This document shows positions 35,812 through 58,662 of a stretch of DNA of 64,000 bases, piece after piece (the stretch's first letter is position 1; each line of letters starts with the position of its first letter). The stretch comes from Maribacter orientalis (GTDB lineage Bacteria; Bacteroidota; Bacteroidia; Flavobacteriales; Flavobacteriaceae). Under the pieces are notes generated by a model. That model saw only the letters and a program-made list of their open reading frames with translations, had not been told where the DNA came from and did no database searches. The stretch lies in NCBI RefSeq assembly GCF_900109345.1, contig NZ_FNZN01000005.1, positions 1 to 64,000 of the forward strand, written 5' to 3'. The translations under genes and the position numbers were made by a program.

Positions 35812-35826
35812 TTATTTGCCGATACA
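35812..35826. repeat. att-like core A (copy of the mnmE 3' end)
   Basis: The 15-base core matches 43364-43378 exactly (16 bp including the next base) and 58648-58662 with one mismatch, all in the same orientation. Read on the minus strand it encodes Cys-Ile-Gly-Lys-stop, the end of MnmE. It lies 20 bp upstream of the phosphatase start and marks the outer limit of the inserted DNA. Confidence 0.8.
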
Positions 35827-35894
35827 GGAATTTTAATCCTATATAAATAAGTAGCTACCGTGATTTGAGGTACAATAAGTCCCGGAAAGTGCAC

Positions 35895-36394
35895 GGAAAT
35901 TATCAGTACCTAATATTTATGCAAATATAGTGTATAGCTATGGGTTAATTTTTATGGCTATCAAATGAATCTGAACTTAATCTGCACTTCAAATAATTTT
36001 GAATCCGTGCTTTAAGCTTACGTTTTTTTTATTTTCAATTCCGCCCTTCATGTATCCTAACTCTGAACTTACATTCTAAAAATATCTATGTAATTGGTCA
36101 TAGCCGAAATAGGATACCTAAGGAATCTGAACCTATCGATTACTATCAAAAGGTTTTATTGGAAAATAACGTCTTAGGATAATTATTGATTTCTAGAAAA
36201 ATAATAAAGAATTTGCTAATGTTCAACATTTTTAAACATGAACCACTTTAAAGGAAGATTACCTGAAATTATGTAGTTAGCTATTGATATTATATAGATA
36301 TGAATCTGTTGACGGTATTATCTGTATTAAACGATTAAATACCTTTTTAATATGATTCATTCGTTCCTTATTGAACTTTATTTTTATTTAAGGC
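35895..36394. other. Intergenic region without recognisable genes
   Basis: About 500 bp of AT-rich DNA lie between the phosphatase and the PRPP synthetase gene. Apart from a minus-strand TATATTTG (35929-35922) that could serve the phosphatase gene, I see nothing: no frame above a dozen or so convincing codons, no repeat, no RNA. Confidence 0.3.
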
Positions 36395-37375
36395 TCATGA
36401 TATTTGAAAGGCATTATCCTCCATCAGGTTACGGATAGCTTCTGCGACCAAGGGGGCGACATTGATGATATCGACCTTCTTTTCCATGAGTTCTTTACTC
36501 AGTCGATGCGGAGGAATACTGTTCGTTATCACAATTTTATCCAAGGCCGGATCTTTCAGCGTTTCATTAGCTGCAACTGAAAAAATGCCATGTGTGGCCA
36601 CCGCATAGACTTTTTTAGCCCCCGCTTGTTTACATGCCTTGGCGGCCCTTAGCAGGGTAGTTCCCGTACTAATGAGGTCATCTATAATGATGACGGTTTT
36701 GGCACGGACCTCTCCAAAGATCTGTGCTGTTCCCCCAACGACGCCTTCACTACGGGTTTTGTGCATTACGGCCACAGGAATCGGTGTTTTTTGTTCTTTT
36801 TCGAGGGTTTTCGCAAATGCCATGGCACGTTTTATACCTCCGCTATCTGGGGATAATACCACGGTTTCGGTTTTTTTAAGCAATGGGGTAAAATAGTTCG
36901 CAAGAAAACCCTTGGCTTCTAGGTGGGTTGTAGGTATCCGGAACGCATTTTCAAAGGCCTGTACATTATGTACATCCAGGGTCACCAGCCTATCCGTTCC
37001 CAGGGCCTCGAATAAACGGGCAACATATTGGGTGGTAATCGGGTCATAGCTCTTGGTCTTTTTATCTTTTCGGGAATAGCACAAATACGGGGCGATTACC
37101 GTAACCGTAGCTGCCCCCGCATCTTTTAATGAACCGATAAAAAACAATACCCGGCACAGTTTGTCATTGACCGTTAGTTGGGGGTCCCCATAGAGGCTGT
37201 ATATGATAAAGATGGCCTTGTTCCTCACATCTACCAATGACCGTATCTTATGTTCCCCTTCCGAAAAGTCCCGTTCCTCGTGGACGCTCAAAGTACCCCC
37301 TATAGCTTCTGCGACCATGCTGCCGAAAGCTTTACTGGGTTCCAATGCAAAAATCAGGTTTTTGGTAGTGTTCAT
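36395..37375 (-). CDS. Divergent ribose-phosphate pyrophosphokinase (accessory PRPP synthetase)
   Basis: The 326-residue enzyme makes PRPP from ribose 5-phosphate and ATP. Family marks are FSEGEHKIR near 40, APYLCYSRKDKKTKSYDPIT near 98, LSPDSGGIKRAMAFAKTL near 182, and the PRPP loop VIIIDDLISTGTTLLRAAKA near 230. The flexible-loop/histidine region reads VTLDVHNVQAFENAF, unlike the canonical LDLHADQIQGFFD, which points to the accessory class found outside purine operons. Its base composition is clearly more GC-rich than the polysaccharide genes to the left, suggesting transfer with the island. It is divergent from the lipoprotein gene that follows. Confidence 0.88.
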   Translation of the reverse strand: MNTTKNLIFALEPSKAFGSMVAEAIGGTLSVHEERDFSEGEHKIRSLVDVRNKAIFIIYSLYGDPQLTVNDKLCRVLFFIGSLKDAGAATVTVIAPYLCYSRKDKKTKSYDPITTQYVARLFEALGTDRLVTLDVHNVQAFENAFRIPTTHLEAKGFLANYFTPLLKKTETVVLSPDSGGIKRAMAFAKTLEKEQKTPIPVAVMHKTRSEGVVGGTAQIFGEVRAKTVIIIDDLISTGTTLLRAAKACKQAGAKKVYAVATHGIFSVAANETLKDPALDKIVITNSIPPHRLSKELMEKKVDIINVAPLVAEAIRNLMEDNAFQIS

Positions 37376-37573
37376 TAGATTTTATTTGATGTAATAGCCA
37401 TGTTTCCCGTGAAATTGAAAAAAACAAAAACATAATACAATGATACTAGTCAGTCGCAACCGATGATCTACATCATTGTAAAAGGGGAATAGGCCTTATA
37501 ATTTTATTGACATCGTGGTAGGATGTTAAAACACGGTAGATGCACGAAAAAAGTCAATTTAAAACAGGGTATT

Positions 37574-38083
37574 ATGGCACATTCCAATACATTCAAGTTC
37601 AAGTATAGACTGACATTATTTTTAGTCATGGGCATGGCGACCATACTTTTTTCCTGTAAAAGGGCTGCGGAAAAGACTAGTGAAAAAATCATAGAAGAGT
37701 CCATGGGTGATGAAGCCAAAGTAGCTATAGAAGATGAGAAAATAGGTATTGAAACCGATGAGGGTGCCTTTACCACAGATGCAACGGCACATAATTGGCC
37801 CAAGGAAATTTCTAGGGAAGTACCCGAATTTACATACGGTAAAATAACAGCGGTTACTACGCAAGAAATGGAAGGAGATATGAACTGGGCACTCATTTTT
37901 GAAGAGGTGCCCCAAACTGCCCTGGAGCAATATAAGGAGCAGCTGGTGAGCAAAGGTTTTGAAATCAAGTACACGATTACTACCGGAACCGGAGGCCATC
38001 TCACCTGTGAAAAAGGGAAACTCACCGTGATGGCTATGGTGGGGGATGGGAGTGCTACGCTTACCATTGGTTCCCAACCGTGA
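37574..38083 (+). CDS. Small lipoprotein of unknown function
   Basis: From ATG 37574 the protein has 169 residues and a lipoprotein signal (LVMGMATILFSCKRAAEK, Cys near 27). An acidic linker and a compact domain follow, with FTYGKITAVTTQEMEG, WALIFEEVPQTALEQYKEQL and a Gly/Thr-rich end. An earlier ATG in the frame (37523) would add 17 residues before the signal and is less likely. I do not recognise the family. The base composition is like that of the PRPP synthetase gene beside it. Together with the CapA stub 19 bp downstream it may form an imported gene set. Confidence 0.7.
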   Translation: MAHSNTFKFKYRLTLFLVMGMATILFSCKRAAEKTSEKIIEESMGDEAKVAIEDEKIGIETDEGAFTTDATAHNWPKEISREVPEFTYGKITAVTTQEMEGDMNWALIFEEVPQTALEQYKEQLVSKGFEIKYTITTGTGGHLTCEKGKLTVMAMVGDGSATLTIGSQP

Positions 38084-38102
38084 GATCCTACAAGAATAGA
38101 TA

Positions 38103-38171
38103 ATGGCAAAAAAAATCACTTTATGTTTCTCTGGCGATGTAATGACGGGGCGTGGTGTTGATCAGATTTAA
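38103..38171 (+). pseudogene. N-terminal stub of a CapA-family (poly-gamma-glutamate synthesis) protein
   Basis: The 22-codon frame encodes MAKKITLCFSGDVMTGRGVD followed by Gln-Ile and a stop. The GDVMTGRGVDQ string is the metal-binding start of CapA-type metallophosphatases, which are normally several hundred residues long. Nothing downstream continues the domain in any frame, so a deletion or rearrangement removed the rest. It starts 19 bp after the lipoprotein stop in the same direction. This is the point where GC-richer DNA changes to ordinary AT-rich DNA. Confidence 0.6.
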
Positions 38172-38383: not shown

Positions 38384-38965
38384 ATGCTTCATTTAAAATT
38401 AGCAACAGACCCACGTTGGGTTACTATTGTTGAAAAAAATATAGAAGAAATACTAACAGATCATGCATGGTGTGAACAAAAAGCCGCTACCAATGCGATT
38501 ACTATAATTACACTAAACTCTGAATACCCTGATTTAGTTACTGATTTGCTTCTTTTAGCACAAGAAGAATTAGTTCACTTTCAAATGGTACATGATATTA
38601 TTAAAAAGCGCGGTTACACTTTAGGTAGAGAGCGTAGAGACAGCTACGTTAACGAGCTTTACAAGTTTATGAGCAAAGGTGGCAACAGACTTCAATCGAT
38701 GGTAGATAGGCTCTTATTTTCTGCTATGATCGAGGCAAGAAGCTGCGAACGTTTTAAACTACTTTCAAAAGAAATTAAAGACCCAGAGCTTTCTAAGTTT
38801 TATAATGATTTAATGATTAGTGAAGCAGGGCATTATACAACTTTTATTGGTTTTGCTCGTAAATACGGTCAAGATATAGATGTAGATAAACGCTGGCAAG
38901 AATTGGTGGAATTTGAGGCTAAAGTGATTAAAAATTATGGGAAAGAAGAAACCATACACGGTTGA
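38384..38965 (+). CDS. miaE: tRNA-(ms2io6A)-hydroxylase (MiaE-like)
   Basis: The 193-residue ferritin-like di-iron protein should hydroxylate the isopentenyl group of ms2i6A37 in tRNA. Ligand motifs are DHAWCEQKAATNAITI with the first Glu near 32, LAQEELVHFQMVHDII near 66, MIEARSCERFKLLSKE near 111, and SEAGHYTTFIGFARKY near 146. It stands alone, with about 210 bp on each side. Its presence between the two att-like copies is unexpected for a tRNA-modification gene and is noted in the findings. Confidence 0.88.
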   Translation: MLHLKLATDPRWVTIVEKNIEEILTDHAWCEQKAATNAITIITLNSEYPDLVTDLLLLAQEELVHFQMVHDIIKKRGYTLGRERRDSYVNELYKFMSKGGNRLQSMVDRLLFSAMIEARSCERFKLLSKEIKDPELSKFYNDLMISEAGHYTTFIGFARKYGQDIDVDKRWQELVEFEAKVIKNYGKEETIHG

Positions 38966-39187: not shown

Positions 39188-40786
39188 ATGAAATTGCCCT
39201 ATATCTTTTTAACAACAGTTTTTCTTATTTTTTCTTCTTGTCAAACTAAAAAAGAGGAAGATTCGAAATCAGAACATGAACAACGACCAAATATCTTGTT
39301 CATTTTAGCAGATGATTTTGGTTTGGAGGATATGAGCTTTGTCGGCAGTACATATTATGAAACTCCTAATATTGATAAGTTGGCATCTCGAAGTATGGTA
39401 TTTACTCAGGGTTATGCTGGTAGTAGAGTTTGTAGTCCTTCTAGAGCTACTATTATGACCGGTAAGTTTACTGCCCGTCATGGAGTTACCAATTGGATTG
39501 GGGAGAAGTTTGGAGAAGATTGGCGTTCTATGGGTAGACATGATAAATTGTTGCCTGCAGATTATGTGCATAATTTACCAAAAGAAGACATTACGATTGC
39601 AGAGGCACTTCAAGATAATGGGTACACTACTTTTTTTGCAGGTAAATGGCATTTAGGTGATGAAGGTTCTTATCCTGAGGATCATGGGTTTCAATTTAAC
39701 AAAGGAGGATGGGATAAAGGTAGTCCTATGGGTGGCTATTATTCCCCTTTTGATAATCCCAAATTAGAAAATAAGTATGACGGTGAAAATCTTTCTATCC
39801 GTCTTGCAAAAGAAACCAATGATTTTATTACTATGCACAGAGATAGTAGCTTTTTAGCTTTTCTATCTTTTTATGCGGTTCACGGACCTATAGAGACCAC
39901 TCAAGAAAAATGGAATAAGTATCAGCAAAAAGCCATAGTAAATGGTATTGCCAATGATGGATTTACAATGGAAAAGAAATTGCCAATCCGAGTTACTCAA
40001 GATAATCCAATATATGCCGGATTGGTTGAAACCATGGATGACGCCATAGGGTTGGTTTTAGATAATCTTGAAAATCTTGGATTAGATAAAAACACGATTA
40101 TCATATTTACATCTGATAATGGGGGTGTTTCTTCAGGCGATGCCTTTTCAACTTCCAATTTACCTTACAGAGGTGGTAAAGGATATCATTGGGAAGGTGG
40201 TATTCGAGAACCTTATTTAATTTATGTTCCCAACCAAACATCCGAAGGTATGGCAAGTGACTATCCGGTAACAGGTGCAGATTTTTATCCAACTATTTTA
40301 GATTATGCTAATATTGAATTAAAGGCTGAGCAACACAAAGACGGAATCAGTTTAAAATCTTTGATAAATGAAGGAGCGCTATTGCCGGAAAGGCCCTTAT
40401 TTTGGCATTACCCACATTATGGAAATCAAGGCGGTGATCCTTCTTCGGTTATCAGAAAAGGAGATTGGAAATTGATTCATTATTATGAAGAAGATGCTGA
40501 TGAGTTGTATAATTTGGCAGTAGACCCATATGAAAGTCAAAATCTGGCAGCTAATAATTCTGAATTAACCGAAAGCCTATATGAAGAATTGAAGAACTGG
40601 CTTATTGAAGTTGAGGCAAAATTTCCTGAAAAAGAAGAAAAATTTGATGCAAAAAAGCGTTTGGAGTATGATAAAAAAATAGTAAATGAACTTTTACCTA
40701 AACTAGAAAAAGAACGATTAAAATTGTTAGAAAAGGACTACCAACCCAATAAAAATTGGTGGGGTAGTAAAACTACTAAAGATTAG
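39188..40786 (+). CDS. Sulfatase (S1 family), secreted lipoprotein
   Basis: The 532-residue arylsulfatase-like enzyme has a lipoprotein signal (LIFSSCQTKKEED). NILFILADDFGLEDMSFVG near 34 holds metal ligands, and the formylglycine motif is CSPSRATIMTGK near 82. Other active-site parts are GKWHLGDEGSYPEDHGF near 155, FTSDNGGVSSGD near 308 and RGGKGYHWEGGIREPYL near 328. The Cys-type motif needs the anaerobic or aerobic formylglycine-generating system, which is not in this window. It should remove sulfate from a carbohydrate at the cell surface. The second sulfatase follows 57 bp downstream, so they are likely co-expressed. Confidence 0.9.
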   Translation: MKLPYIFLTTVFLIFSSCQTKKEEDSKSEHEQRPNILFILADDFGLEDMSFVGSTYYETPNIDKLASRSMVFTQGYAGSRVCSPSRATIMTGKFTARHGVTNWIGEKFGEDWRSMGRHDKLLPADYVHNLPKEDITIAEALQDNGYTTFFAGKWHLGDEGSYPEDHGFQFNKGGWDKGSPMGGYYSPFDNPKLENKYDGENLSIRLAKETNDFITMHRDSSFLAFLSFYAVHGPIETTQEKWNKYQQKAIVNGIANDGFTMEKKLPIRVTQDNPIYAGLVETMDDAIGLVLDNLENLGLDKNTIIIFTSDNGGVSSGDAFSTSNLPYRGGKGYHWEGGIREPYLIYVPNQTSEGMASDYPVTGADFYPTILDYANIELKAEQHKDGISLKSLINEGALLPERPLFWHYPHYGNQGGDPSSVIRKGDWKLIHYYEEDADELYNLAVDPYESQNLAANNSELTESLYEELKNWLIEVEAKFPEKEEKFDAKKRLEYDKKIVNELLPKLEKERLKLLEKDYQPNKNWWGSKTTKD

Positions 40787-40843
40787 TTTTTTGTAATCGA
40801 ACCAATTATTAGAGCTATACATTTCCCATACTTATATAAAGAT

Positions 40844-42418
40844 ATGAAGCGAATATGTTTACAATTTAGATTTTTTGTTACTCCTATACTATTGATACTT
40901 TTAGCTATGGTAATAGGTTGTAAAAAAACAGATAAAAAGGAAGGTGCATCATTAGAAATGAAAAGTCCCAATATTATTATAATCTATGCTGATGATTTAG
41001 GTTATGGTGATTTAAGTTCCTACGGTGCTACTGAGATTAAGACCCCAAATATGGATAGACTGGTAAACGAAGGGATAAAGTTTACCAATGGATATGCATC
41101 TTCAGCAACGTGTACACCCAGTAGATATGCACTATTAACAGGCGTCTATCCTTGGAGGAACAAAAATGCAAAAATCCTTCCTGGTACTGCCCCGTTATTA
41201 ATTGACACGACCCAGATGACGGTAGCTAAATTATTAAAGCAAAACGGTTACAAAACAGGTATTGTTGGTAAGTGGCATTTAGGCCTAGGTAATGGTCAAG
41301 TAGATTGGAACGGTCATATAACACCCGGCCCTAATGAAGTAGGATTTGACTACAGCTATATTATGGCTGCTACACAGGATCGTGTACCTACAGTTTATAT
41401 TAAGAATGGAAGAGTTGAGAATCTTGATCCCAATGATCCAATTGAAGTTAATTATGATGAAAATTATGAAGGACAACCAACCGGCAAAGACAGTCCTGAA
41501 CTTTTAAAGATGAATTGGCATCACGGGCATAATAATACAATTGTAAATGGTATTCCCCGTATAGGCTTTATGAAAGGTGGAGATTCAGCCAAATGGATAG
41601 ATGAGGAAATGGCACCACAATTTTTAGAAAAGGCCAAAAATTTCGTTACCACCAATAAAGACCAGCCCTTCTTTTTATATTATGCTTTACAACAGCCTCA
41701 TGTGCCTCGAACGCCAGCACCAGAGTTTGTAGGGAAGTCTGGAATGGGTCCAAGGGGTGACGTAATTTTGGAAGCGGATTGGTGTATTGGTCAACTGTAT
41801 GCTACGTTAGAGGAACAAGGTCTTCTGGCAAATACACTAATCATTTTTACAAGCGATAATGGTCCGGTATTAAATGACGGATACTATGATGATGCCGTAG
41901 AGAAAATTGGGAACCACACACCATCGGGACCTTTAAGAGGTGGTAAATACAGCCTTTTTGAAGCTGGGACAAGGGTGCCTTTCGCAACCTACTGGAAAGG
42001 AACTATAGCACCGCAGATTAGTGAAGCATTAGTTTCACAACTAGATTTTTTAAGTTCTTTAGCATCATTAATAGGTGATGATTATAAAGGTAAGGACAGT
42101 GAAAATTTCATGGATGTTTTCTTAGGTAAAAAGAATGTTGGTAGGGAAAATCTAATATTAGAAGCTACTTCAAGAACGGCATTACGCTCTAAAGATTGGA
42201 TATTGATCCCTCCATACAAGGGTGCTCCTATAGCCGAACAGGTTAATATAGAATTGGGAAATAGTTTAGATTACCAGCTTTATAATCTTTCGAATGACAT
42301 TGGGCAAACTACAAATATTGCCAATACAGAACCTGAAAAATTACGTGAGATGATTAAAATTTATGAATCCATTAGAGGTACTGTGGACTCTCCAACAGAA
42401 ACTTTAGAATTGAAATAA
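40844..42418 (+). CDS. Sulfatase (S1 family), secreted lipoprotein
   Basis: The 524-residue enzyme has a lipoprotein signal (ILLAMVIGCKKTDKKE, Cys near 27) and the sulfatase order: NIIIIYADDLGYGDLSSYGA near 45, CTPSRYALLTGVYPWR near 86 with the cysteine converted to formylglycine, VGKWHLGLGNG near 145, PFFLYYALQQPHVPRTPAPE near 278, and IIFTSDNGPVLNDGYYDD near 335. It is not a duplicate of the upstream sulfatase: motifs and lengths differ, so they may attack different sulfate positions. No SusC/SusD pair or glycoside hydrolase lies nearby. Confidence 0.9.
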   Translation: MKRICLQFRFFVTPILLILLAMVIGCKKTDKKEGASLEMKSPNIIIIYADDLGYGDLSSYGATEIKTPNMDRLVNEGIKFTNGYASSATCTPSRYALLTGVYPWRNKNAKILPGTAPLLIDTTQMTVAKLLKQNGYKTGIVGKWHLGLGNGQVDWNGHITPGPNEVGFDYSYIMAATQDRVPTVYIKNGRVENLDPNDPIEVNYDENYEGQPTGKDSPELLKMNWHHGHNNTIVNGIPRIGFMKGGDSAKWIDEEMAPQFLEKAKNFVTTNKDQPFFLYYALQQPHVPRTPAPEFVGKSGMGPRGDVILEADWCIGQLYATLEEQGLLANTLIIFTSDNGPVLNDGYYDDAVEKIGNHTPSGPLRGGKYSLFEAGTRVPFATYWKGTIAPQISEALVSQLDFLSSLASLIGDDYKGKDSENFMDVFLGKKNVGRENLILEATSRTALRSKDWILIPPYKGAPIAEQVNIELGNSLDYQLYNLSNDIGQTTNIANTEPEKLREMIKIYESIRGTVDSPTETLELK

Positions 42419-43020: not shown

Positions 43021-43236
43021 GTATATCAATTAGCATTGGCGTGAATGTAGTCAACTAAACAGGATATTAAAAAGAGTAGGGGAAATATAAACGCTGTTCA
43101 ACACATCCCCAACAAGCTCTGCGGAGTAACATAGCACCACCTGATTTCTGAAAAAATGTTAAAACTCAGCAGAGTAGTAGGCAATTTGCTACATCATTTC
43201 CCCTTATGTCTCAAATATGATTTAAAAACGATAGCT

Positions 43237-43257
43237 AGGTACAATATCGGTACAAAA
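43237..43257 (+). repeat. Pair of GGTACAA boxes near copy B (distal segment side)
   Basis: AGGTACAATA at 43237-43246 is followed 11 bp further on by GGTACAAAA at 43249-43257. AGGTACAATA also occurs at 35868-35877, beside copy A, in the same direction. The 11-bp step equals that of the AGGTGAAA pairs of the proximal element. They may be arm-type sites of a lost integrase. Confidence 0.4.
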
Positions 43258-43363
43258 ATGTGCTAAAAAACGCTAAATATTGCACAGTGCTACAAAGCCT
43301 AATTTATGAAAACTCATATATTATTGAGGTTTACGGGTATTTTGTAAGTATAGTTTTGTGATG

Positions 43364-43378
43364 TTATTTGCCGATACA
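43364..43378. repeat. att-like core B (copy of the mnmE 3' end)
   Basis: The core is identical to copy A over 16 bp and differs from the mnmE-borne copy C at one base. It encodes Cys-Ile-Gly-Lys-stop on the minus strand. A 9-bp inverted repeat, GTTTACGGG at 43329-43337 and CCCGTAAAC at 43392-43400, brackets it. It separates the distal and proximal inserted segments. Confidence 0.8.
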
Positions 43379-43418
43379 GTATCTTCTTATCCCCGTAAAC
43401 ATTGTGGTAGGGGCGTCT

Positions 43419-43437
43419 GAGGTGGAAAATAGGTGAA
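43419..43437 (+). repeat. Arm-type box pair at the left end of the proximal element
   Basis: GAGGTGGAAAATAGGTGAA begins 41 bp from the end of core B. It matches GAGGTGAAAATTAGGTGAA at 58459-58477, with two mismatches and the same 11-bp step between AGGTG boxes. The likely role is binding of the integrase arm domain. Confidence 0.55.
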
Positions 43438-43476
43438 CACTTTTGCTTTCCTTTAGTCGGATAATGATTTCAATGA

Positions 43477-43666: not shown

Positions 43667-43960
43667 TCATTTCAGGTGCTTTGGAATATCACTTCGACCA
43701 TGCAAAACTCGGACAATACGAATGCGATCTGGTAAAATTCGGTAAAAAATGATATGGGATACATGCGGAAGACTATATAATCCAACTTTTATTTCATCCC
43801 TTTGTTTGCCTATGTCTGGATTTGTGGTCAACGCCTCAAAATACTCTCGTAAGCCCTCTAAATATTTTGTGGCCTGTGAATGCCCAAATTTATGGATTCC
43901 AAAATCATAGATTTCTTGAAGGTCATTTTTGGCGGCTTCAGCAAGAACGAATCGATTCAT
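43667..43960 (-). CDS. parE: ParE-type toxin (RelE/ParE superfamily)
   Basis: The 97-residue protein has the ParE pattern: VLAEAAKNDLQEIYDFGIHK at the start, TNPDIGKQRDEIKVGLYSLP near 50, and the C-terminal HIIFYRILPDRIRIVRVLHG followed by RSD. ParE toxins usually poison DNA gyrase. It overlaps the parD stop by 4 bp (ATGA), so antitoxin and toxin are coupled. Its position at the far end of the mobile element fits a maintenance role after integration. Confidence 0.88.
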   Translation of the reverse strand: MNRFVLAEAAKNDLQEIYDFGIHKFGHSQATKYLEGLREYFEALTTNPDIGKQRDEIKVGLYSLPHVSHIIFYRILPDRIRIVRVLHGRSDIPKHLK

Positions 43961-44184
43961 TGAGCTTGTTTCCTAGAAGCTATGATATCGTCAACGCTTA
44001 TATCGCTGTCTGGGCCGTTCCATCCTTTTTCAATCTCGACCCTTAAATCTGCGATTACTTTATGGCGGTATATCTGATGCAATCGAAGTGCATCACGAAT
44101 TACCTCACTATTGTTTTGATACTCCCCAGAATCGACCTGTTTGGAGATATATTCCTCTTGTTTTTTAGTAAAACTAATGTTCAT
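43957..44184 (-). CDS. parD: ParD-type antitoxin
   Basis: The 75-residue protein begins with the ribbon-helix-helix domain (ISFTKKQEEYISKQVDSGEY, NNSEVIRDALRLHQ) and ends with a Trp/Gly/Asp toxin-wrapping tail (EKGWNGPDSDISVDDIIA). It should neutralise ParE and repress its own promoter in the roughly 130-bp region upstream. It is coupled to parE by a 4-bp overlap. Confidence 0.9.
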   Translation of the reverse strand: MNISFTKKQEEYISKQVDSGEYQNNSEVIRDALRLHQIYRHKVIADLRVEIEKGWNGPDSDISVDDIIASRKQAQ

Positions 44185-50368: not shown

Positions 50369-50792
50369 CTATTTATTGGTTACTGTTAATTTTACTTCAA
50401 TGTTACCACGTGTAGCATTGGAGTAAGGACATACTTGATGTGCTTTTTCTGCCAATTCCTTTGCTTGTTTTAAGTTTACTTCTGGTATATTTACCTCTAA
50501 TTCTGCCGCTAAACCAAAGCCACCGTTTTTGATTCGGCCGATGCTTATTTTTTGCATTTACGCTTGTTTCGCCTGTCTCTATTACGCCTTGTGTAATAAC
50601 TAAGTTTAAGGCATTATCGAAACAAGCTGAATAGCCTGCTGCAAAAAGCATTTCAGGATTGGGGTAGTCGTCATTTGCGCCACCCAATGCTTTTGGACTT
50701 CTTACTTCAAGGTCTAAAACGTTGTTTTTACTTTTTACATGGCCGTTCCGACCACCTGTTGCAGTTGCTTCTGCTGTATATATTGCTTTCAT
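50369..50792 (-). pseudogene. ohr: OsmC/Ohr-family organic hydroperoxide resistance protein, frameshifted
   Basis: The first frame from ATG 50792 gives TAEATATGGRNGHVKSKNNV, the first redox cysteine in FAAGYSACFDNALNLV, and then leaves the family after TSVNAKN. The next frame resumes with KISIGRIKNGGFGLAAELEV and carries the second cysteine in KAHQVCPYSNATRGNIEVKL to the stop at 50369. The change is at the A6 run near 50550, where five A residues would restore one frame. It is either a recent inactivation or a sequencing error, because both halves are otherwise well conserved. Confidence 0.75.
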
Positions 50793-50853
50793 TTCTAAAA
50801 TTTTTATTAATTAATAGGTGTTAAATTGATGTTCAGCTTAATTCTTTATCTGT

Positions 50854-51837
50854 TTAAACTAAACTTATAATCACCTTTCCTTGTGCTCTTCCAGTAGCCA
50901 AGTATTCATAAGCATCAACGCCATCCTCGAAAGCATAAATTAGGTCGACTACGGGCTTGATTTCACGGTCTTCAACCATTTTACTGATAAGTTTCAACTG
51001 TTTAGCATTAGGTTGCATCCATGTAAGTTTGTAGGTAGCGGATTTCTTTTCAATCAGTTTCGATAACTGTTCGGGCAACTCGTAATCCGTCATACCCATT
51101 TGCTTTGCCGTGTCTTGGTCAGGAGGACCTACTATGGTAGTCACCCGTCCCCCTTCTTCAATGATTTCAAAGGCTTCATTGGTGTACTCATCCCCTAGCG
51201 TGTCAAAAACGATATCCAGATTTTTTGCAACGGTTTTATAGTCTTCCATTTTATAATCAATGACACGGTCTGCTCCCAAAGCTTTCACCCAGTCTACATT
51301 TTTGGTACTTGTTGTCGTATAAACAATGGCGCCTTTAGCTTTGGCATACTGAATCGCAAAACTACCTACCCCACCAGATCCTGCATGGATTAGAACCCTG
51401 TCATTTTCTTTCAAACCAACGCGTTCCAAAGCCTGAATAGCTGTGAGGCCCGCCAATGGCAGACCAGCCGCTTCTTCAAAGGAGCTATTTGTTGGTTTCT
51501 TGGCAACAACATCACTATTGATGGCCACATATTCCGCGACCGTACCCATTTGTTCTTGCGGCACTCTAGCGTATATTTCGTCGCCAACTTCAAAATTACC
51601 TACGTCCACACCCTTTTCAACCACTATACCGCTAACATCAAAACCAATGGTACATGGAAATTCTAAGGCAATCATCTCCCTCAAGTGGCCTTCAACCAAT
51701 TTGTAATCGATGGGGTTTAGCGATGCTGCCTTGACTTGAACTAGAATATCATTCGATGTTATAGACGGTTTTTCTATCTCGTTGATGGATAAACTGTCTT
51801 TAAGAGCTCCGTATTTTACTATTTGTAATGCTTTCAT
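50854..51837 (-). CDS. Zinc-independent MDR-family NADP-dependent oxidoreductase (quinone reductase-like)
   Basis: The 327-residue protein has the GroES-like start (IEKPSITSNDILVQVKAASL, NPIDYKLVEG), FPCTIGFDVSGIVVEKG near 60, and the nucleotide fold VLIHAGSGGVGSFAIQYAKA near 145. The zinc-ligand cysteines of alcohol dehydrogenases are absent, so it belongs to the quinone oxidoreductase/enoyl reductase branch. Expected to reduce quinones or activated alkenes with NADPH. It is 13 bp from doxX and lies in the redox part of the element cargo. Confidence 0.85.
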   Translation of the reverse strand: MKALQIVKYGALKDSLSINEIEKPSITSNDILVQVKAASLNPIDYKLVEGHLREMIALEFPCTIGFDVSGIVVEKGVDVGNFEVGDEIYARVPQEQMGTVAEYVAINSDVVAKKPTNSSFEEAAGLPLAGLTAIQALERVGLKENDRVLIHAGSGGVGSFAIQYAKAKGAIVYTTTSTKNVDWVKALGADRVIDYKMEDYKTVAKNLDIVFDTLGDEYTNEAFEIIEEGGRVTTIVGPPDQDTAKQMGMTDYELPEQLSKLIEKKSATYKLTWMQPNAKQLKLISKMVEDREIKPVVDLIYAFEDGVDAYEYLATGRAQGKVIISLV

Positions 51838-51850
51838 GCTTTTTATGTTT

Positions 51851-52282
51851 TTAAGTTAACGTTCTGTTATTTCTCCATGCCTGCCATGAACCCGCCGACC
51901 ATAACACCCAAGCAATCAGGACTGGTTGGAAGAAGAGTCGGATCAATCGGGTCCTATCCGAATCAAGTGATCCAAACGCATCTTTTCCATCCAAATATTG
52001 AGCGATATTACCAGGGAATACCAGAATAAAGAATAGCGCCAATGCCCATCCAACGTTCACACGTTGCTTTTTCCATAATAGTAAGGCCAGACCTAGGCTT
52101 ATTTCAACAATTCCGGATAAAATAACCACGAGGTCCTTGCTTAGTGGCATCCAATCCGGAACCTGGGCTTGAAAATCTATCCGGTTAAACGTTAAGTGGC
52201 TATATCCGGCAAAAATCATAAAGAGGGCCAATAAAATTCTGAAAATGTTCTGTGTTAGTGTTGTTTCTACTACTTTTTTCAT
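51851..52282 (-). CDS. DoxX-like membrane protein
   Basis: The 143-residue protein has four hydrophobic segments: IFRILLALFMIFAGYSHLTF, DLVVILSGIVEISLGLALLL, VGWALALFFILVFPGNIAQY, and LIRLFFQPVLIAWVLWSAGS. This is the DoxX layout, with the usual FAG.SHL sequence in helix 1. DoxX-type proteins are linked to thiol or quinone redox balance. Its 5' end overlaps 83 bp of the hydrolase frame upstream, which is unusually long and probably reflects an extended upstream gene. Confidence 0.78.
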   Translation of the reverse strand: MKKVVETTLTQNIFRILLALFMIFAGYSHLTFNRIDFQAQVPDWMPLSKDLVVILSGIVEISLGLALLLWKKQRVNVGWALALFFILVFPGNIAQYLDGKDAFGSLDSDRTRLIRLFFQPVLIAWVLWSAGSWQAWRNNRTLT

Positions 52283-53291
52283 AAGATATATTGTTGTGCG
52301 TTGTTTGTGTTGATTTAAAATTTATGCTCACCCATTCAAACATTTTTTTATAGACATTTTCCCCAATCGGCTTTTTTGAAAGTATTAAATCATGCATGCC
52401 ATTTTCTATTTCGCAAATAGTTACGTTTCCTTTGATTTTATTGGCATAATGTCTTATATGGTCAATATTCAATACCGCGTCTCCCTCTTTTAGTTTCTCG
52501 GACCAGTGGTTTTGGTAGATTGATTTATCACTATGCATCACCAATATCGGCACATCTACAACGAGTTTATTTTTTAAGTTCTCTTGTGCTTCATGGATAG
52601 CACTGATGAAACCTAGATTTATCTTGGGTATATCATGAGGTTTCCATGCAAGGGAATACTCCCATTCCCCATATTTGTCCTGGTGCAAACTATGGCCATA
52701 TAGTTTTGAAAATCCTCCTGAAACAGTTTTGTTAGGAAAATACCTGCCAAGAAAAGACAGTATCGGGATTCCCATCTTTCTCTCAAAATCATTTAAATTG
52801 AATTCATAAAACGGACTATTGCAGAGCACACCATGAAAAAGAGTACTATTTAGATGATTCACGGCATAATTCGTTACAATAAGACCTCCTGTAGAGTGCC
52901 CCATTAAAATGACCTCCTTGTTTTTTTCCGATTTAATGATTTGTAAGGCCATGTTTATTTCTTCATCATATTCCAATAAAGACCGTACATTATTAAGTTT
53001 TTGATGGCTTAGATATGACCGCCCGTACTTGCGTAAATCCAAAGCATAAAAATGAAATCCATTTTTATTATATCGCTTGGCTAGCTCTTTTTGAAAAAAA
53101 TAATCATTAAAACCGTGCACATATAAAATGGCCTTGTTGGACATGGTATCTAACTTTCGCCGTATTAGCGTAGCCACTACTTCGCCTTCATAATCGTCAG
53201 GAAAGCATAAGGTTATGCTCTCAAACCTATCATCAAGTATATCTGTTACATAAGTAGTGGCAGTATTTTCAATGAATTTAAAGTCCTGCAT
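52200..53291 (-). CDS. Alpha/beta hydrolase (lysophospholipase-like) with an odd C-terminal extension
   Basis: The 363-residue protein has the hydrolase fold with KAILYVHGFNDYFFQKELAK near 53, DLRKYGRSY for the oxyanion strand, the nucleophile elbow VILMGHSTGGLIVTNYA near 130, and the final histidine in CEIENGMHDLILSKKPIG near 302. The family would end near FEWVSINFK. The last 37 residues (STQTTHNNISYEKSSRNNTN onward) are translated from the leader and first codons of doxX in another frame, so the original stop seems to have been lost. Substrate unknown; monoglycerides or lysophospholipids are common for this group. Confidence 0.8.
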   Translation of the reverse strand: MQDFKFIENTATTYVTDILDDRFESITLCFPDDYEGEVVATLIRRKLDTMSNKAILYVHGFNDYFFQKELAKRYNKNGFHFYALDLRKYGRSYLSHQKLNNVRSLLEYDEEINMALQIIKSEKNKEVILMGHSTGGLIVTNYAVNHLNSTLFHGVLCNSPFYEFNLNDFERKMGIPILSFLGRYFPNKTVSGGFSKLYGHSLHQDKYGEWEYSLAWKPHDIPKINLGFISAIHEAQENLKNKLVVDVPILVMHSDKSIYQNHWSEKLKEGDAVLNIDHIRHYANKIKGNVTICEIENGMHDLILSKKPIGENVYKKMFEWVSINFKSTQTTHNNISYEKSSRNNTNTEHFQNFIGPLYDFCRI

Positions 53292-53296
53292 TCGAT

Positions 53297-54481
53297 TTAG
53301 TGTGTGATTGTATTCATTACTCTTTTTTTCTTTTTAACGCGTCTATATATTTTGTACTGAAGCAATACTGCCATTGCGACAAACGCAACAAGGGTGATGA
53401 GCAATAATATATTGATCTCAGGTTTAATGGACGATACGTCTCCTCCGTAAAAGGCTATCTTTCTGAATCCACTTAAGAACTGGGTCAAGGGAATGTACTG
53501 GGCGGTATTCGTTATAGCATCGGGAAACGTCAGTGTTGGCCATGTAAATCCACTAAGTACGAAAGCAGGGGTTGAAATGACCATCAACAACTCGGTAGCC
53601 TTTAGTTGGCTCGGAATTGCTATGGAGAACAGCATTCCGATAAACATAGAGCCCAATGTCAATAAAGCTGTCAAAACCAGCATGGGGAAATTGAATATAT
53701 CGGCATCGATCTTAAAATAGACAATGAACAAGCTTACGATTGCCCACATCATGGGTATCATCAATAAAAACGGTGTGGATTTAAGGGCGATGTGGTATAA
53801 GGAAGATTTGCTATTTTTTATGAGTTCTTCAAAGTAGCCGTCTTCAAAATCCCTGGCAAAAACCAGTGCCATTCCCAGAAAGATAATTTGTTGCATAATC
53901 GTGGCAAGCAAACCCGGGAGCATAAAAGTTAAATAGTTCCCCGTAGAATTGTACAACTTATTAAAGTTGATTTTAAAAGGTTCGAAGGAGGTTGTTGCCT
54001 GGTTAGGATGTAGTCCCTGTTTTTTGAGGCCTTCTATTTCTATACCGGCATTCAGGGTAATTAAGACCGATTGAATATTCTTACTTGCGGTATTGGCATT
54101 CAGTATATTCGCCATATTCAAATCGACCCTTATTTCAGGGTGTCTTTTTTGGAGAAGATCTGCCTCGAAATTCGCAGGTAAGGTGATTACTGCAGTATAT
54201 TGTTCGGTGGGCATTTCCTTTAAAATGTTCCCTGGAATGTATCTCACATCGGTCACAAGCAATACTTCATTGTCCTCAAAGGCATCGATAATCTTGTCCG
54301 AAGTAGGACTATGGTCTAAATCTATGATAACGAGAGGAAGGTCTAGCACTTTTGCCTGCTTATAGACATAGCCAAATAAAATTCCGTAAAATATGGGCGC
54401 CCCAATAAAAATAGCAAGCAGCACATTATTTGAAAATATGCGCTTAAATTCTTTCCGGAGTAATCTCAAAAATTTTTTCAT
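53297..54481 (-). CDS. ABC-2-type transporter permease
   Basis: Starting at MKKFLRLLRKEFKRIFSNNV (ATG 54481) the product has 394 residues; an upstream in-frame ATG at 54511 would overlap the hlyD gene. One N-terminal helix (VLLAIFIGAPIFYGILFGYV), a large periplasmic loop (about 55-165) and five C-terminal helices match YhhJ/YbhR-type ABC-2 permeases. No ATPase gene follows, so the partner is either missing or encoded elsewhere. With the upstream HlyD and TolC genes it should form a tripartite exporter. Gap to hlyD is 7 bp. Confidence 0.87.
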   Translation of the reverse strand: MKKFLRLLRKEFKRIFSNNVLLAIFIGAPIFYGILFGYVYKQAKVLDLPLVIIDLDHSPTSDKIIDAFEDNEVLLVTDVRYIPGNILKEMPTEQYTAVITLPANFEADLLQKRHPEIRVDLNMANILNANTASKNIQSVLITLNAGIEIEGLKKQGLHPNQATTSFEPFKINFNKLYNSTGNYLTFMLPGLLATIMQQIIFLGMALVFARDFEDGYFEELIKNSKSSLYHIALKSTPFLLMIPMMWAIVSLFIVYFKIDADIFNFPMLVLTALLTLGSMFIGMLFSIAIPSQLKATELLMVISTPAFVLSGFTWPTLTFPDAITNTAQYIPLTQFLSGFRKIAFYGGDVSSIKPEINILLLITLVAFVAMAVLLQYKIYRRVKKKKRVMNTITH

Positions 54482-54488
54482 ACCATGA

Positions 54489-55448
54489 TTATTTAATAAG
54501 AATGGTAGCATTCATATAAAATTTCTGTTGTAAAATTTCCTCGGTAGGAACGACCTTCAACTCATAAATGGACTCGGACAATTCATATAATGGAGCCGTA
54601 CTCGTAATGTCGGCATATCCTGGTAGCTGCTTTATTGCTGTAATTTTTGCCTCGATTTCTTCCTCGGTATATGGATTAACAATGGTAAGTGGTTTGCCCA
54701 ATTCGAAATCATACACTTTGGATTCGGGAATCGTAAACCTAAAATAGACGCTGTTATTTTTATAACCATTGAACAACGCATACCCTGGGGTAAGTAATTC
54801 CCCTTCTTGAAGACTGATGGTTTCTATGGACATGTCCGCCGGGGCAATGATAAATTTCTCATCGGCTGCGGCAAGTACTTCTTCTTTTGCACCGATCGCC
54901 CTGTCCAGCTGGCCTTTGGCTTGGTCTAGTTGTTCTACCCTGGCGCTTTTGCCTACCTCGCTGCGTTTAGCCTCCAAAGCGGCGATGTTGGCCTTAGCCA
55001 TATCAAGTTTCATCTTTACTTCATCCAATTGCTGCCCGGTAACCAGCGAGTCGTTATACATGGCCTGTAACCTATTATAGGATTGCTGGGCAAAATTAAG
55101 TTGTGCCCTCCCCGCATCGATTTGACCATTTATTTGATTTAGTTGCTCAACGGTTGCACCGTTGGAAGCCATATTAAATTGACCCTTAGCCGATGTAATG
55201 GCACCTTCTGCCTGCACAAGTTTGGCGTTTACCTCCGGAATATTCAAAAGTGCTAGGGTATCCCCTTTTTTTACGGTCTGCCCTTCCTCAACATACACCT
55301 TATCGATTCTTCCGGCGAGTTTGCTGCTAACGGAGATTGTTTCGAACTTTACTTTCCCTCTGAAAGGAGTAATCGACGAGTCGTTTCCGCAAGAACTTAA
55401 GGCGATAATTGCGACGAAGCCCGTTACTATGTTTCTAAATAATTTCAT
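54489..55448 (-). CDS. Periplasmic adaptor (HlyD/membrane-fusion) lipoprotein
   Basis: The 319-residue protein has a lipoprotein signal (AIIALSSCGNDSS, Cys near 20). A lipoyl/barrel part follows (ISVSSKLAGRIDKVYVEEGQ, VKKGDTLALLNIPEVNAKLV), then a long coiled-coil hairpin rich in Ala/Gln (about 85-195), and the second lipoyl half (IETISLQEGELLTPGYALFN). It should link the ABC-2 permease to the TolC channel. It is 22 bp from the tolC stop. The group is of the YbhG/EmrA-like adaptor class. Confidence 0.87.
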   Translation of the reverse strand: MKLFRNIVTGFVAIIALSSCGNDSSITPFRGKVKFETISVSSKLAGRIDKVYVEEGQTVKKGDTLALLNIPEVNAKLVQAEGAITSAKGQFNMASNGATVEQLNQINGQIDAGRAQLNFAQQSYNRLQAMYNDSLVTGQQLDEVKMKLDMAKANIAALEAKRSEVGKSARVEQLDQAKGQLDRAIGAKEEVLAAADEKFIIAPADMSIETISLQEGELLTPGYALFNGYKNNSVYFRFTIPESKVYDFELGKPLTIVNPYTEEEIEAKITAIKQLPGYADITSTAPLYELSESIYELKVVPTEEILQQKFYMNATILIK

Positions 55449-55470
55449 TTTTCTAACCTTTTAAGCTCCA

Positions 55471-56844
55471 CTAGTAATTAAGGGACCCTTTCGCATAAAG
55501 CAATTCAATGAACGCCCTTCGTTGATCAAAAAAGGATTCTTGTAATTTGAAATTGGATTTTTCCAAATCGTTCAAAGCCTCCAACATATCGGTAATTGAA
55601 GCCAAATCGTTTTTATACTGTTTATTGACCATTTTATAAGTATCCTTCGCCAACTCAATTTCTTTTTGAACCATATTGATCTTCTGAAGGGATGAATTAT
55701 ACCCTAGTTCAGCTTTGGTGATACCAAGAGAGATCATTTCTTGGGCATCCTCGATTTGTTCTCTATATTTTCTTCCTTCAATTACAGATTTCTTACTGTT
55801 CAAATAGGATTGATTACCGTCAAAGATGTTCCATTTCAAACCCATTCCAACGAACCAAATAGGGTCTAACAACGACAAATCGTCTTCTATAAATTCATAA
55901 TGCCCTTTTAAGGCAAGCTTAGGCACAAAGCTGTTTTTTTCCATTTTCGCCTTGTAAAGAGTTGCTTTTTCAGCTTCCTCTAAGGCTTTGACCTCATTTC
56001 GCTTTTGAATAGTTGATAATGAGTCGTTCACGAACGGCCGTAATTGAGGCTCAATCAGTCTTAAACGTTCCCTATTTTCATTTGTAAGTTGATGTAGTAC
56101 CTCTATCAGCAGTATTTTATTTTGATTATACTCCAACTGTTTGGTTTTTAATTGCTGCTGTGCCAGTTCAATTTTTTTTCGGCCAATGGGCGTGGCAAGG
56201 CCGTTCTGGATGGATTTTTTTACGTAATACTCTTGTTCGTTTAAGTAGTTTTTAGAAGTGTTCAATACTTCTTCGGAGGCATAGACCAGCGCAAGTTTGT
56301 CATAGGTCTCTATTATTTTTAGTGCTAATTTGTCCTTTTCGGCCATACCCAAATAATTGAACGAAGCTTCTTTATGCCTACTCGCTTTAAAAGCATTGCT
56401 CGCTTCGAATCCGCTAAAAAGTACCCAATCCAGATCAACGGAGGACCTTAGGATATTTTTGTCCTGCAAATTGGTAATTTCCGTTAGCGGAACATCATTG
56501 GGAAATTCAGCATTAAAAGGAATTCCCGTGGCCTCTTTTATTAGTAATCTTTGCGTTGCAACCAATAGATTTCGTGTATCGCTGTCAAATGTGATATCAT
56601 CGTTCAATCGCGTATAGCTTCCATTTATGGTAACCTTGGGAAGGAAAGTAGATTTTGCCAATCGCTGATCAACTTTTGCCTGCTCGGCTTCAAAACCATT
56701 GATTTTTATACCATGGCTTTTATCCAAGCCTTTAGCTATAAGTTGAGCAAGCTCCGGATCAAGCTGTTGTCCTATTACCTCATATTGTGCAACCAATACA
56801 AAGGCTACGGATACACCTATATTTATTAAAAGATTTCGATACAT
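55471..56844 (-). CDS. TolC-family outer-membrane efflux protein
   Basis: The 457-residue protein has a signal peptide (about 1-25) and two TolC-like repeats with long helices: SHGIKINGFEAEQAKVDQRL near 40, FLPKVTINGSYTRLNDD near 65, and FVPKLALKGHYEFIEDDLSL near 305. It ends with a helix rich in Lys/Glu/Leu (DMLEALNDLEKSNFKLQESF). It should be the outer-membrane channel of the exporter encoded by the next two genes. It is the first gene of this operon, and no regulator gene stands before it; the presumed promoter lies in the 460-bp gap upstream. Confidence 0.88.
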   Translation of the reverse strand: MYRNLLINIGVSVAFVLVAQYEVIGQQLDPELAQLIAKGLDKSHGIKINGFEAEQAKVDQRLAKSTFLPKVTINGSYTRLNDDITFDSDTRNLLVATQRLLIKEATGIPFNAEFPNDVPLTEITNLQDKNILRSSVDLDWVLFSGFEASNAFKASRHKEASFNYLGMAEKDKLALKIIETYDKLALVYASEEVLNTSKNYLNEQEYYVKKSIQNGLATPIGRKKIELAQQQLKTKQLEYNQNKILLIEVLHQLTNENRERLRLIEPQLRPFVNDSLSTIQKRNEVKALEEAEKATLYKAKMEKNSFVPKLALKGHYEFIEDDLSLLDPIWFVGMGLKWNIFDGNQSYLNSKKSVIEGRKYREQIEDAQEMISLGITKAELGYNSSLQKINMVQKEIELAKDTYKMVNKQYKNDLASITDMLEALNDLEKSNFKLQESFFDQRRAFIELLYAKGSLNY

Positions 56845-57307: not shown

Positions 57308-58414
57308 CTAATAAATATCCAGATTCAATTCAGGAATTAGATTAGCTGCTTCCTTCATTTTTTCATCGATAATCTTGGTATAGATTTCCGTTGTTCGAAT
57401 TTCACGATGACCCAATCGTTTTGATACTGTTAAATATCTGCTCCATTTTCTAACAGCAGTACAGCATTTGTGTGTCTTGCACTATGGAAGGTGATATGTT
57501 TAGTAATTCCAGCTTTCATGCACCATCTTAGAATTTCGGTATTATAGACTGCTCCATATTTAAGTCCTCTGAAAACCCGGTCGCTTTCGTTAGTTCTTTT
57601 GCCTAAAAGCTTTCGCGACTGCTCAGAAACATAAAGGTATTCTAGCCCATCGGTTTTTTTCTGTCTAAAGATGATTCGTGACCCCGTGTCTTCATCTCGG
57701 ACTTCTGACCATCTTAATTTATCTATATCGCTCCATCGTAAACCTGGAAGACAACTGAAAATAAAAGCGTTTTTTAACATAGGGTACTTACACTCTGCTT
57801 GTGTCAATCCCTGTAGTTCGGAATAGGTAAGGTACTCTCGCGTAGATTCACCTTGCTCAAAACCTTTAACTGACCGTAGTACATTTTCTCCTAAAAAGTT
57901 TTCGGTATAGGCTTCCCTTATGGCTGCTTTAAATTTATTGAAATAGGTATATTTAGAATTTTGGGATAGGGGAGTGTCACTCTTTGTTTTTGCCTTATTG
58001 TTTAACTATGTCTTAAAACCCTTTACGAATTCGATATCAATATTTTTCAATGTGTTTTTGAGCGGCATCCCAATTTCCATAATTGGCCTTGGTTTCAAAA
58101 CGTTCCTCTTTTAGCCTTTTGTAATAATCCATAAAAGTAATCATACCCTTTTTATCATTTCTCAATTTGAATTTTCCTTGGTAGAATTCTGCTTTTCGAA
58201 TAGAAAGGATTTTTTAGGCTAGTTCATAGGTTTCTTTGTTTTTTCTTTTTTCATCTGACGTACTCGGATCTTGTAAGGGATAGAGCTTCAAATATTCAAA
58301 ATCACGGTCATATTTATTTATACCGTTTTTGTCAATGTAATGTCCTTTGTAGAATTCTAAAAAGAGACTAAGTTTTCCGTTTTTAATCTTTTTACTCTTG
58401 AGGCTTATTTTCAT
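57308..58414 (-). pseudogene. Tyrosine recombinase (integrase) with several inactivating changes
   Basis: The order of family segments is complete: N-terminal arm domain (MKISLKSKKIKNGKLSLFLE from 58414), core-binding part (MDYYKRLKEERFETKANYGN, YTYFNKFKAAIREAYTENFL), and catalytic domain with Arg in LPGLRWSDIDKLRWSEV and HSARHTNAVLLLENGAD. The frame is broken by TAA at 58216-58214, a frameshift near 58020-58060, TAG at 58008-58006, and a one-base loss near 57434. Beyond that last change VSKRLGHREIRTTEIYTKI, holding the catalytic tyrosine, is read in another frame and ends at 57308. The product cannot be functional. Its place next to the mnmE end is that of the recombinase in SGI1-like islands. 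Confidence 0.85.
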
Positions 58415-58417
58415 AAC

Positions 58418-58479
58418 TGAGGTGAAATTTTTTCACCTCAAGGACTAAAATATCATCCGAGGTGAAAATTAGGTGAAAT
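58418..58479. promoter_or_regulatory. AGGTGAAA boxes upstream of the integrase gene
   Basis: Arms 58418-58427 (TGAGGTGAAA) and 58431-58440 form a perfect 10-bp inverted repeat around TTT, 4 bp before the integrase start. Two more direct boxes follow at 58459-58467 (GAGGTGAAA) and 58470-58478 (TAGGTGAAA). The pair at 58459-58477 recurs at the other end of the element (43419-43437). They could be integrase arm sites, an operator, or both. Confidence 0.55.
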
Positions 58480-58550
58480 AAATGTATAAAAATAGGAGAT
58501 TATGAGAAAGAGAAAATAAAGATACTTTTCAACAACTTATTGATTTACAG

Positions 58551-58640
58551 TCATATGAAACCAAATGAAACCAAATGAAACCAAATGAAACCAAATGAAA
58601 CCAAATGAAACCAAATGAAACCATTTAAGACCAAAGGAAA
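58551..58640 (+). repeat. Tandem 10-bp repeats (CCAAATGAAA) beside the mnmE end
   Basis: Six exact copies of CCAAATGAAA fill 58561-58620. A partial unit (TCATATGAAA) comes before and two changed units (CCATTTAAGA, CCAAAGGAAA) after, making nine units in phase. The array ends 7 bp before the mnmE stop and att core C. One helical turn per unit suggests a series of protein-binding sites on one DNA face. Confidence 0.9.
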
Positions 58641-58647
58641 AACTTAT

Positions 58648-58662
58648 TTATTTTCCGATACA
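58648..58662. repeat. att-like core C at the mnmE stop codon
   Basis: The core covers the last codons of mnmE (Cys-Ile-Gly-Lys-stop on the minus strand). It differs from copies A and B at one base (58654, T instead of G on the plus strand), which is silent in the glycine codon. It is the chromosomal boundary of the inserted DNA. Confidence 0.8.

What the first reader, a model, noticed from the sequence alone, without database searches (positions are those of the whole stretch)
35812..58662. Three direct copies of the mnmE 3' end suggest tandem insertions
A 15-base core that encodes the last residues of MnmE (Cys-Ile-Gly-Lys-stop on the minus strand) occurs at 35812-35826, 43364-43378 and 58648-58662, all in the same direction. 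The first two are identical over 16 bp and the third, the real gene end, differs at one silent position. Established: SGI1-type islands integrate at the 3' end of mnmE (trmE) and restore its last codons. Inference: two islands (7.5 kb and 15.3 kb) lie in tandem here, and before insertion the mnmE stop was only about 20 bp from the start of the phosphatase gene of the polysaccharide locus. Use of this target in a flavobacterium, and stacking of two units, is worth attention.
Basis: partly seen in the sequence, partly recalled or inferred. Interest (0 to 1): 0.85.

Follow-up and report, generated by a model that had tools for sequence, protein, structure and literature searches.

The report
Stacked mobile islands at mnmE's end
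In a marine Maribacter-type bacterium a mobile DNA island and an older decayed relic sit end to end at the tail of the tRNA-modification gene mnmE, and relatives show that this gene tail is a regular landing site for one set of related DNA-inserting enzymes.

Summary
The three 15-base copies are real and are the only ones in the 4.16 Mb genome. Relatives explain them. Against the closest one, G015, alignment breaks at copies 1 and 2: the 15.3 kb unit 43379-58647 is absent and the site is whole. In G013 a related island sits directly between mnmE and the phosphatase, with breaks at copies 2 and 3. The 15.3 kb unit looks like an integrative mobilizable element: relaxase module, tyrosine integrase now broken. 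The 7.5 kb unit is not an equal island but an older integrase-less remnant, largely present in G015, that keeps att-like ends. So: one element accreted on a relic. More widely, 78 of the 80 best integrase relatives kept from one genome scan follow an mnmE 3' end, and mnmE's stop codon (TAA or TAG) changes 3 times on the integrase tree but 15 times on the MnmE tree. Nine searches of the held papers found no report of this site in Bacteroidota. New variant of a known kind.

The parts
58648..60045 (-). mnmE, 465 aa, intact; last codons C-I-G-K-stop are core copy 1 (58648-58662)
   Evidence: 96% identical to G015
58555..58623 (.). 6.9 perfect copies of a 10-bp unit beside the mnmE core; relatives have about 3 degenerate copies in the same place (my reading by eye), possibly integrase or excisionase arm sites
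57314..58414 (-). tyrosine integrase, broken: three pieces in two frames with in-frame stops
   Evidence: 85-97% identical per piece to the intact G013 integrase
47834..56844 (-). cargo of the 15.3 kb unit: outer-membrane efflux protein, HlyD-type protein, ABC-2 permease, hydrolase, a DoxX-like ORF (by eye, not searched), alcohol dehydrogenase-like, OsmC-like fragment, 3-hydroxyacyl-CoA dehydrogenase-like, glyoxalase-like, phospholipase A1-like
   Evidence: OsmC match is below Pfam's cut-off
46102..46941 (-). primase-like gene (Toprim_2 above cut-off; zinc ribbon just below)
45646..45942 (-). mobilization protein MbpA / NikA-like
   Evidence: above NCBIfam cut-off
44870..45649 (-). relaxase, MobA/VirD2-like; nearest NCBIfam model MbpB, below its cut-off
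43667..44184 (-). ParDE toxin-antitoxin pair (43667-43960 ParE, 43957-44184 ParD)
43379..43471 (.). left arm of the 15.3 kb unit, next to core copy 2; shared with G013
43364..43378 (.). core copy 2, boundary between the two units
43232..43342 (.). stretch that resembles the region between mnmE and integrase in relatives (68% over 115 aligned bases, E 1.4e-6 among 72 spacers): likely decayed integrase side of the older unit
39188..42418 (+). two sulfatase-like genes of the older unit (39188-40786 by Pfam; 40844-42418 by eye, not searched)
   Evidence: present in G015
38384..38965 (+). miaE of the older unit
   Evidence: directly beside mnmE in six congeners
35906..38167 (.). block with a PRPP-synthetase-like gene (36395-37375, -) and a lipoprotein-like ORF (37523-38083, +; no Pfam hit), absent from G015
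35827..35886 (.). 'type B' left arm of the older unit, about 60 bp, similar in G015, G011 and two sites of G016
35812..35826 (.). core copy 3, distal end of the older unit
35052..35792 (-). CpsB/CapC-type phosphatase, the gene that followed mnmE before insertion (start at 35792 by comparison with G016 and others; the longer ORF runs through the core)

Best explanation
The mnmE 3' end (codons C-I-G-K-stop) is the chromosomal att site of a set of related Bacteroidota tyrosine integrases. An early element landed between mnmE and the cpsB-type phosphatase, lost its integrase and any transfer genes, and stayed as an integrase-less remnant (35812-43378) that now holds miaE and two sulfatases. Later a 15.3 kb integrative mobilizable element (43379-58647) recombined into the same site, pushed the remnant away from mnmE and supplied the last codons of mnmE. 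Its own integrase is now broken, so it is probably stranded unless helped in trans. Shown: three cores, empty-site and single-island relatives, shared arms, the linkage of this integrase set to mnmE. Inferred: order of events, the exact strand-exchange point, origin of miaE and sulfatases as cargo, stranding.
For: Unique cores. G015 lacks the 15.3 kb unit and aligns up to both of its ends: G015 1-1398 with window 60045-58648, 1384-1687 with 43378-43061. G013 carries mnmE and integrase (60045-57314), the mobilization module (47625-44298), the left arm to core 2 (43471-43362), and continues at 35827, core 3, into the phosphatase. Five basal congeners lack everything in between. The older unit's far arm recurs in G015, G011 and twice in G016, once at a junction that is whole in G004; its near side resembles pre-integrase regions. 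78 of 80 kept integrase loci have the mnmE core within 1 kb upstream; 29 of 34 matches in a 149-genome family sample, the window's own included. Stop codon: 3 changes on the integrase tree, 15 on the MnmE tree, 74 loci.
Against: Nobody has seen excision or transfer. The older unit has no integrase, and G004 and G015 carry part of it without mobile genes. No intact core was found between the sulfatases and miaE, where a further boundary might be expected. Left-arm motif of the 15.3 kb unit was found at only 4 places in 166 sequences, two of them the same G013 place. TAA/TAG also clusters on the MnmE tree (at most 1 of 500 shuffles as low as 15), trees were quick ones, and of the bases within the core only the last one separates the two trees clearly. 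Some integrases of the wider set are elsewhere: L127, L129, four in the family sample, 8 of 19 in the phylum sample.
Confidence: 0.85

Rival explanations
1. Two separate, equal islands lie in tandem.
For: Three cores in one direction with two units between; G016 also has three cores, at 1378, 14862 and 18511 of its stretch.
Against: No integrase or relaxase in 35812-43378 among the proteins scanned; the sulfatase-miaE part is resident in G015.
Confidence: 0.08
2. The 7.5 kb block is ordinary host DNA and core copy 3 is a coincidence or a worn duplicate of the mnmE end.
For: Relatives carry parts of the block without mobile genes; near-motifs are common if mismatches are allowed.
Against: The near-exact core is unique in the genome; about 60 bp of arm recurs at copy 3 in G015 and G011 and at two sites of G016; G013's island joins the phosphatase at this same core; five congeners lack the block.
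Confidence: 0.07
3. Both units arrived together as one composite element.
For: Such composites are described for other tandem elements (PMC5704250, passages).
Against: G015 has most of the older unit and not the younger; G013 has the younger kind and not the older, which would need separate losses.
Confidence: 0.03

Closest known systems
SGI1 and MGIVchHai6, IMEs at the trmE/mnmE 3' end in Gammaproteobacteria (PMC5704250 Table 1, read; PMC8409611, passages)
   Same: Target gene and gene end; gene end restored by the element; tandem arrays are known for SGI1
   Different: Host phylum; [quoted passage not shown] integrase relationship not compared
Canonical Bacteroidetes IMEs such as NBU1, NBU2, Tn4555, Tn5520
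   Same: Relaxase of one's own plus tyrosine integrase; for NBU1 and others integration at a gene 3' end
   Different: Those listed in PMC5704250 Table 1 use tRNA genes, preferred or AT-rich or loosely defined sites; none is listed at trmE/mnmE
IME-CIME accretion (model of PMC5704250, passages)
   Same: Decayed element that keeps att sites, then a new element in the att site at the target gene end
   Different: There mostly Firmicutes examples in the passages I saw; here at mnmE in Bacteroidota

Membership tests
Integrative mobilizable element (15.3 kb unit) | Own site-specific recombinase | tested here: met
   Tyrosine integrase beside mnmE, but broken in this strain; intact in relatives
Integrative mobilizable element (15.3 kb unit) | Own relaxase / mobilization proteins | tested here: met
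   Relaxase and MbpA
Integrative mobilizable element (15.3 kb unit) | No conjugation machinery of its own | tested here: inconclusive
   None among the proteins of the unit that were scanned; not every ORF was scanned and no T4SS models were run specifically
Integrative mobilizable element (15.3 kb unit) | Flanked by direct repeats at a specific site, with an empty site elsewhere | tested here: met
   Cores 1 and 2; G015 empty
Integrative mobilizable element (15.3 kb unit) | Excises and is mobilised by a helper | not testable with these tools
   Needs an experiment
CIME (7.5 kb unit) | Keeps attL- and attR-like ends | tested here: met
   Cores 2 and 3, far arm shared with other genomes, near side resembling pre-integrase regions
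CIME (7.5 kb unit) | Lacks integration and transfer genes | tested here: met
   None among the four proteins scanned of this unit; second sulfatase and small ORFs not scanned
CIME (7.5 kb unit) | Can be moved in cis with a neighbour | not testable with these tools
   Needs an experiment
SGI1 family | Integrates at the trmE/mnmE 3' end | tested here: met
SGI1 family | MpsA-type atypical relaxase | tested here: not met
   The relaxase found is MobA/VirD2-like (PF03432); MpsA as described in PMC8409611; no search for MpsA itself was made
SGI1 family | Integrase of the SGI1 lineage | not tested
   No SGI1 integrase sequence was obtained

The most novel reading that the evidence does not exclude
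The mnmE 3' end is an old, Bacteroidota-wide landing site for one integrase lineage, and integrase-less units are captured and stacked there in cassette fashion. Some are tiny: in L057 (another family of the order) three cores are spaced 632 and 988 bp with one or two small ORFs each; in L058 one 4.3 kb unit is mostly a 1248-aa STAND-type ATPase gene. Each landing rewrites the host gene's last codons, so the stop codon records which element came last. If resident integrases move such units in trans, mnmE serves as a slow gene-capture array without an integron.
Probability: 0.25. Interest if true: 0.7.

Novelty: new variant of a known kind. Interest (0 to 1): 0.55.

Why it matters
It indicates that the site used by SGI1 in Gammaproteobacteria is also a standing hotspot in Bacteroidota, served by a set of related integrases that turns up beside mnmE in many marine flavobacteria and in some other classes of the phylum. 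That gives ready boundaries for finding islands, and a natural record (the stop codon of a core gene) of which element last landed. Integrases with a short, conserved, protein-coding target could also be of use as genetic tools in a phylum that has few (inference).

Tried and rejected
Considered and rejected: chance repeats; two equal islands; ordinary host DNA for the whole older unit. Megablast of the 15.3 kb unit against plasmids: no match. The G013 integrase against plasmids and phages: only relatives under 60% identity (489 and 338 records). Base composition gives no border: 0.31-0.41 GC in 2-kb steps. The left-arm motif is not general to the family (4 places in 166 sequences). No intact core between sulfatases and miaE. 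PADLOC on three proteins gave only weak matches. Literature: nine searches listed no paper on mnmE/trmE integration in Bacteroidota; subscription papers are mostly not held, and one mapping study that I recalled (doi 10.1093/nar/gkaa156) is not held, so an earlier listing of this site cannot be excluded. PMC12884075 (passages) does not name mnmE or trmE in its main text.
Full report
Observation. In the genome (26 contigs, 4,163,533 bases) TTATTTNCCGATACA occurs three times, all in the window and in one direction, with no hit on the other strand or for the reversed control. With three mismatches allowed the window has 12 matches where shuffles give 8.68 on average, so only near-exact copies carry weight.

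What the units hold. Unit 2, 43379-58647: a ParDE pair, relaxase, MbpA, a primase-like gene, about ten cargo genes and, next to mnmE, a tyrosine integrase. The integrase is broken: three pieces in two frames with in-frame stops, 57314-58414. It is the only match at E up to 1e-80 in this genome. Unit 1, 35812-43378: a PRPP-synthetase-like gene, a lipoprotein-like ORF without a Pfam hit, miaE and two sulfatases, with no mobility gene among the four proteins scanned. The second sulfatase, the ORF 51851-52282 and small ORFs were not run against Pfam.

Relatives. The genus is Maribacter: contigs of four congeners (G003, G005, G008, G013) have the same lengths as named Maribacter contigs. One search covered 40 relatives, 24 of them congeners; a mnmE match that reaches the C-terminus was found in 23 of 24 congeners (in pieces in G010; only weak hits in G024). 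Alignment with G015, whose MnmE is 96% identical, runs to the last base of the mnmE stop (window 58648), resumes at 43378 with core 2, goes on through sulfatases and miaE to 38168, and resumes at 35905 into the phosphatase. Unit 2 and the block 35906-38167 are therefore absent there. G015 has its own further core, with one mismatch, before the phosphatase. Alignment with G013 runs through mnmE and integrase (60045-57314), the mobilization module (47625-44298), a short piece at 43658-43503, the left arm to core 2 (43471-43362), and then resumes at 35827, core 3, into the phosphatase. In G007, G009, G010, G012 and G014 the phosphatase follows mnmE directly; a sixth congener from a later sample, G114, also shows the phosphatase at the mnmE end. 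The gap is 20 bp in G007, 18 in G014, 29 in G012, and 19 after core 3 in the window. In six congeners (G004, G017-G021) miaE lies directly beside mnmE. Integrases stand beside mnmE in G002, G003, G005, G008 and G013. G006's contig ends too soon to judge.

Arms. The 60 bp before core 2 are alike in the window and G013 up to the core, then diverge; the bases after core 2 match the uninterrupted flank of G015. A different arm precedes core 3 and is similar in G015, G011 and two sites of G016; one of the G016 sites interrupts the mnmE-miaE junction that is whole in G004. In congeners with miaE but no clear core the same place shows what look like worn remnants (by eye). Right of core 2 a stretch resembles the control region between mnmE and integrase in relatives: best E 5.2e-7 for G015 and 1.4e-6 for the window, against 72 spacers; weaker matches (E 0.001-0.01) also occur for other flanks in that call. 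I take the stronger ones as the former integrase side of unit 1.

How general. One scan of public genome contigs with four intact integrases found 164 relatives, of which the best 80 were kept. 76 of 80 loci hold mnmE; in one of these, L129, the integrase starts about 5.9 kb away. Counting the mnmE core within 1 kb upstream of the integrase, 78 of 80 qualify: L087 and L135 are contigs that begin inside mnmE, L097 has only an 11-codon mnmE tail, and L127 lies after a restriction-modification-like gene and keeps only the right part of the core. In 149 genomes of the family, drawn evenly, 33 genomes including the window's gave 34 matches at E up to 1e-80; 29 of 34 lie 168-861 bp from the mnmE match on its strand; one exception is at a contig edge and four are a subgroup at about 322 bits on other contigs. 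Some distances are inflated by partial matches (G000, G113). In 296 genomes of the phylum 19 had matches at E up to 1e-70, the window's own included; 11 of 19 have mnmE and its core within 1 kb upstream, three of these in genomes related only at phylum level, and 8 do not.

Further cores. I took up to 20 kb downstream of mnmE from 60 of the 139 sample genomes with mnmE, in order of similarity, leaving out the window's genome, one at a contig edge and one of 88% completeness. Four stretches are under 18 kb, and in five the mnmE end does not fit my core pattern. 17 of 60 have an integrase of this superfamily within about 1.1 kb; 7 of 60 have a further core in the same direction, 0 on the other strand; 4 of these 7 have no integrase beside mnmE. 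In the 76 scan loci with mnmE, 8 have a further core in the up to 17 kb held downstream, 0 on the other strand; most stretches are too short to reach the far end. A relaxase match was seen in 25 of the 80 loci.

The stop codon. On 74 loci with both genes, TAA/TAG of mnmE needs 15 changes on the MnmE tree (last residues left out) and 3 on the integrase tree; shuffled means are about 22 for both, and TAA/TAG is clustered on both trees. Trees were quick ones. Base by base, the last base of the stop codon separates the trees sharply (15 against 3), bases beyond it mildly in the same direction, and the wobble bases of Cys, Ile, Gly and Lys little (14/13, 16/16, 27/23, 10/9); of 11 variable bases before the core, 7 fit the MnmE tree better, 3 the integrase tree, 1 neither. 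In the window the Gly wobble of mnmE differs from cores 2 and 3, and G015 has the base of cores 2 and 3, so here exchange probably lay before that base.

Compared with what is known. PMC5704250 (passages and Table 1) describes accretion of an IME onto a CIME and lists SGI1 and MGIVchHai6 at the trmE 3' end; its Bacteroidetes entries use tRNA genes or loosely defined sites, or have none determined. PMC8409611 (passages) describes SGI1's modules. PMC6531882 (start of abstract in a listing) puts SGI1's site 18 bp from the trmE end. PMC4482086 (two passages) names thdF/mnmE as an SGI1 target. The mechanism is thus known; host phylum, integrase set and extent are what I did not find in the held papers. 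Whether these integrases and SGI1's share the site by descent or by convergence was not tested.

Verdict. The finding is real. The better reading is one mobilizable element, its integrase now broken, accreted on an older remnant, at a site that this set of integrases uses widely in Bacteroidota. A larger claim, a cassette-like capture array at mnmE, is open.

Noticed in passing
58555-58623: Perfect 10-bp tandem array (6.9 copies) beside the mnmE core; the same motif recurs degenerately near 47374-47449, upstream of a broken HTH-like ORF (by eye), as if one protein bound both places.
   Followed up: partly
L057:1363-3000 (mnmE first): Three mnmE cores spaced 632 and 988 bp with small ORFs between and no integrase: mini-units in another family of the order.
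   Followed up: partly
L058:1381-5736 (mnmE first): 4.3 kb between two cores, filled mostly by one 1248-aa ORF with an nSTAND3 domain; PADLOC matches were weak.
   Followed up: partly
L127:9800-10001: Leeuwenhoekiella blandensis: an integrase of this set follows a restriction-modification-like gene and only the right part of the core is present; possibly a secondary site.
   Followed up: no
L034 (G015, mnmE first) 1550-3100; window 43061-43195: G015 has two copies of a stretch that the window has once, flanking a DUF1080-like ORF (recalled name, not searched); looks like gain or loss by repeat recombination.
   Followed up: no
L179:2840-2884 (mnmE first): The further core is preceded by about 30 bp of mnmE-like sequence, so some units carry a longer copy of the gene's tail.
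   Followed up: no
E. coli genomes, mnmE-tnaC junction: Of 5374 E. coli genomes with a match to the mnmE end plus 300 bp, 4602 hold at least 80% of it in one place; the junction is interrupted or divergent in the other 772.
   Followed up: no
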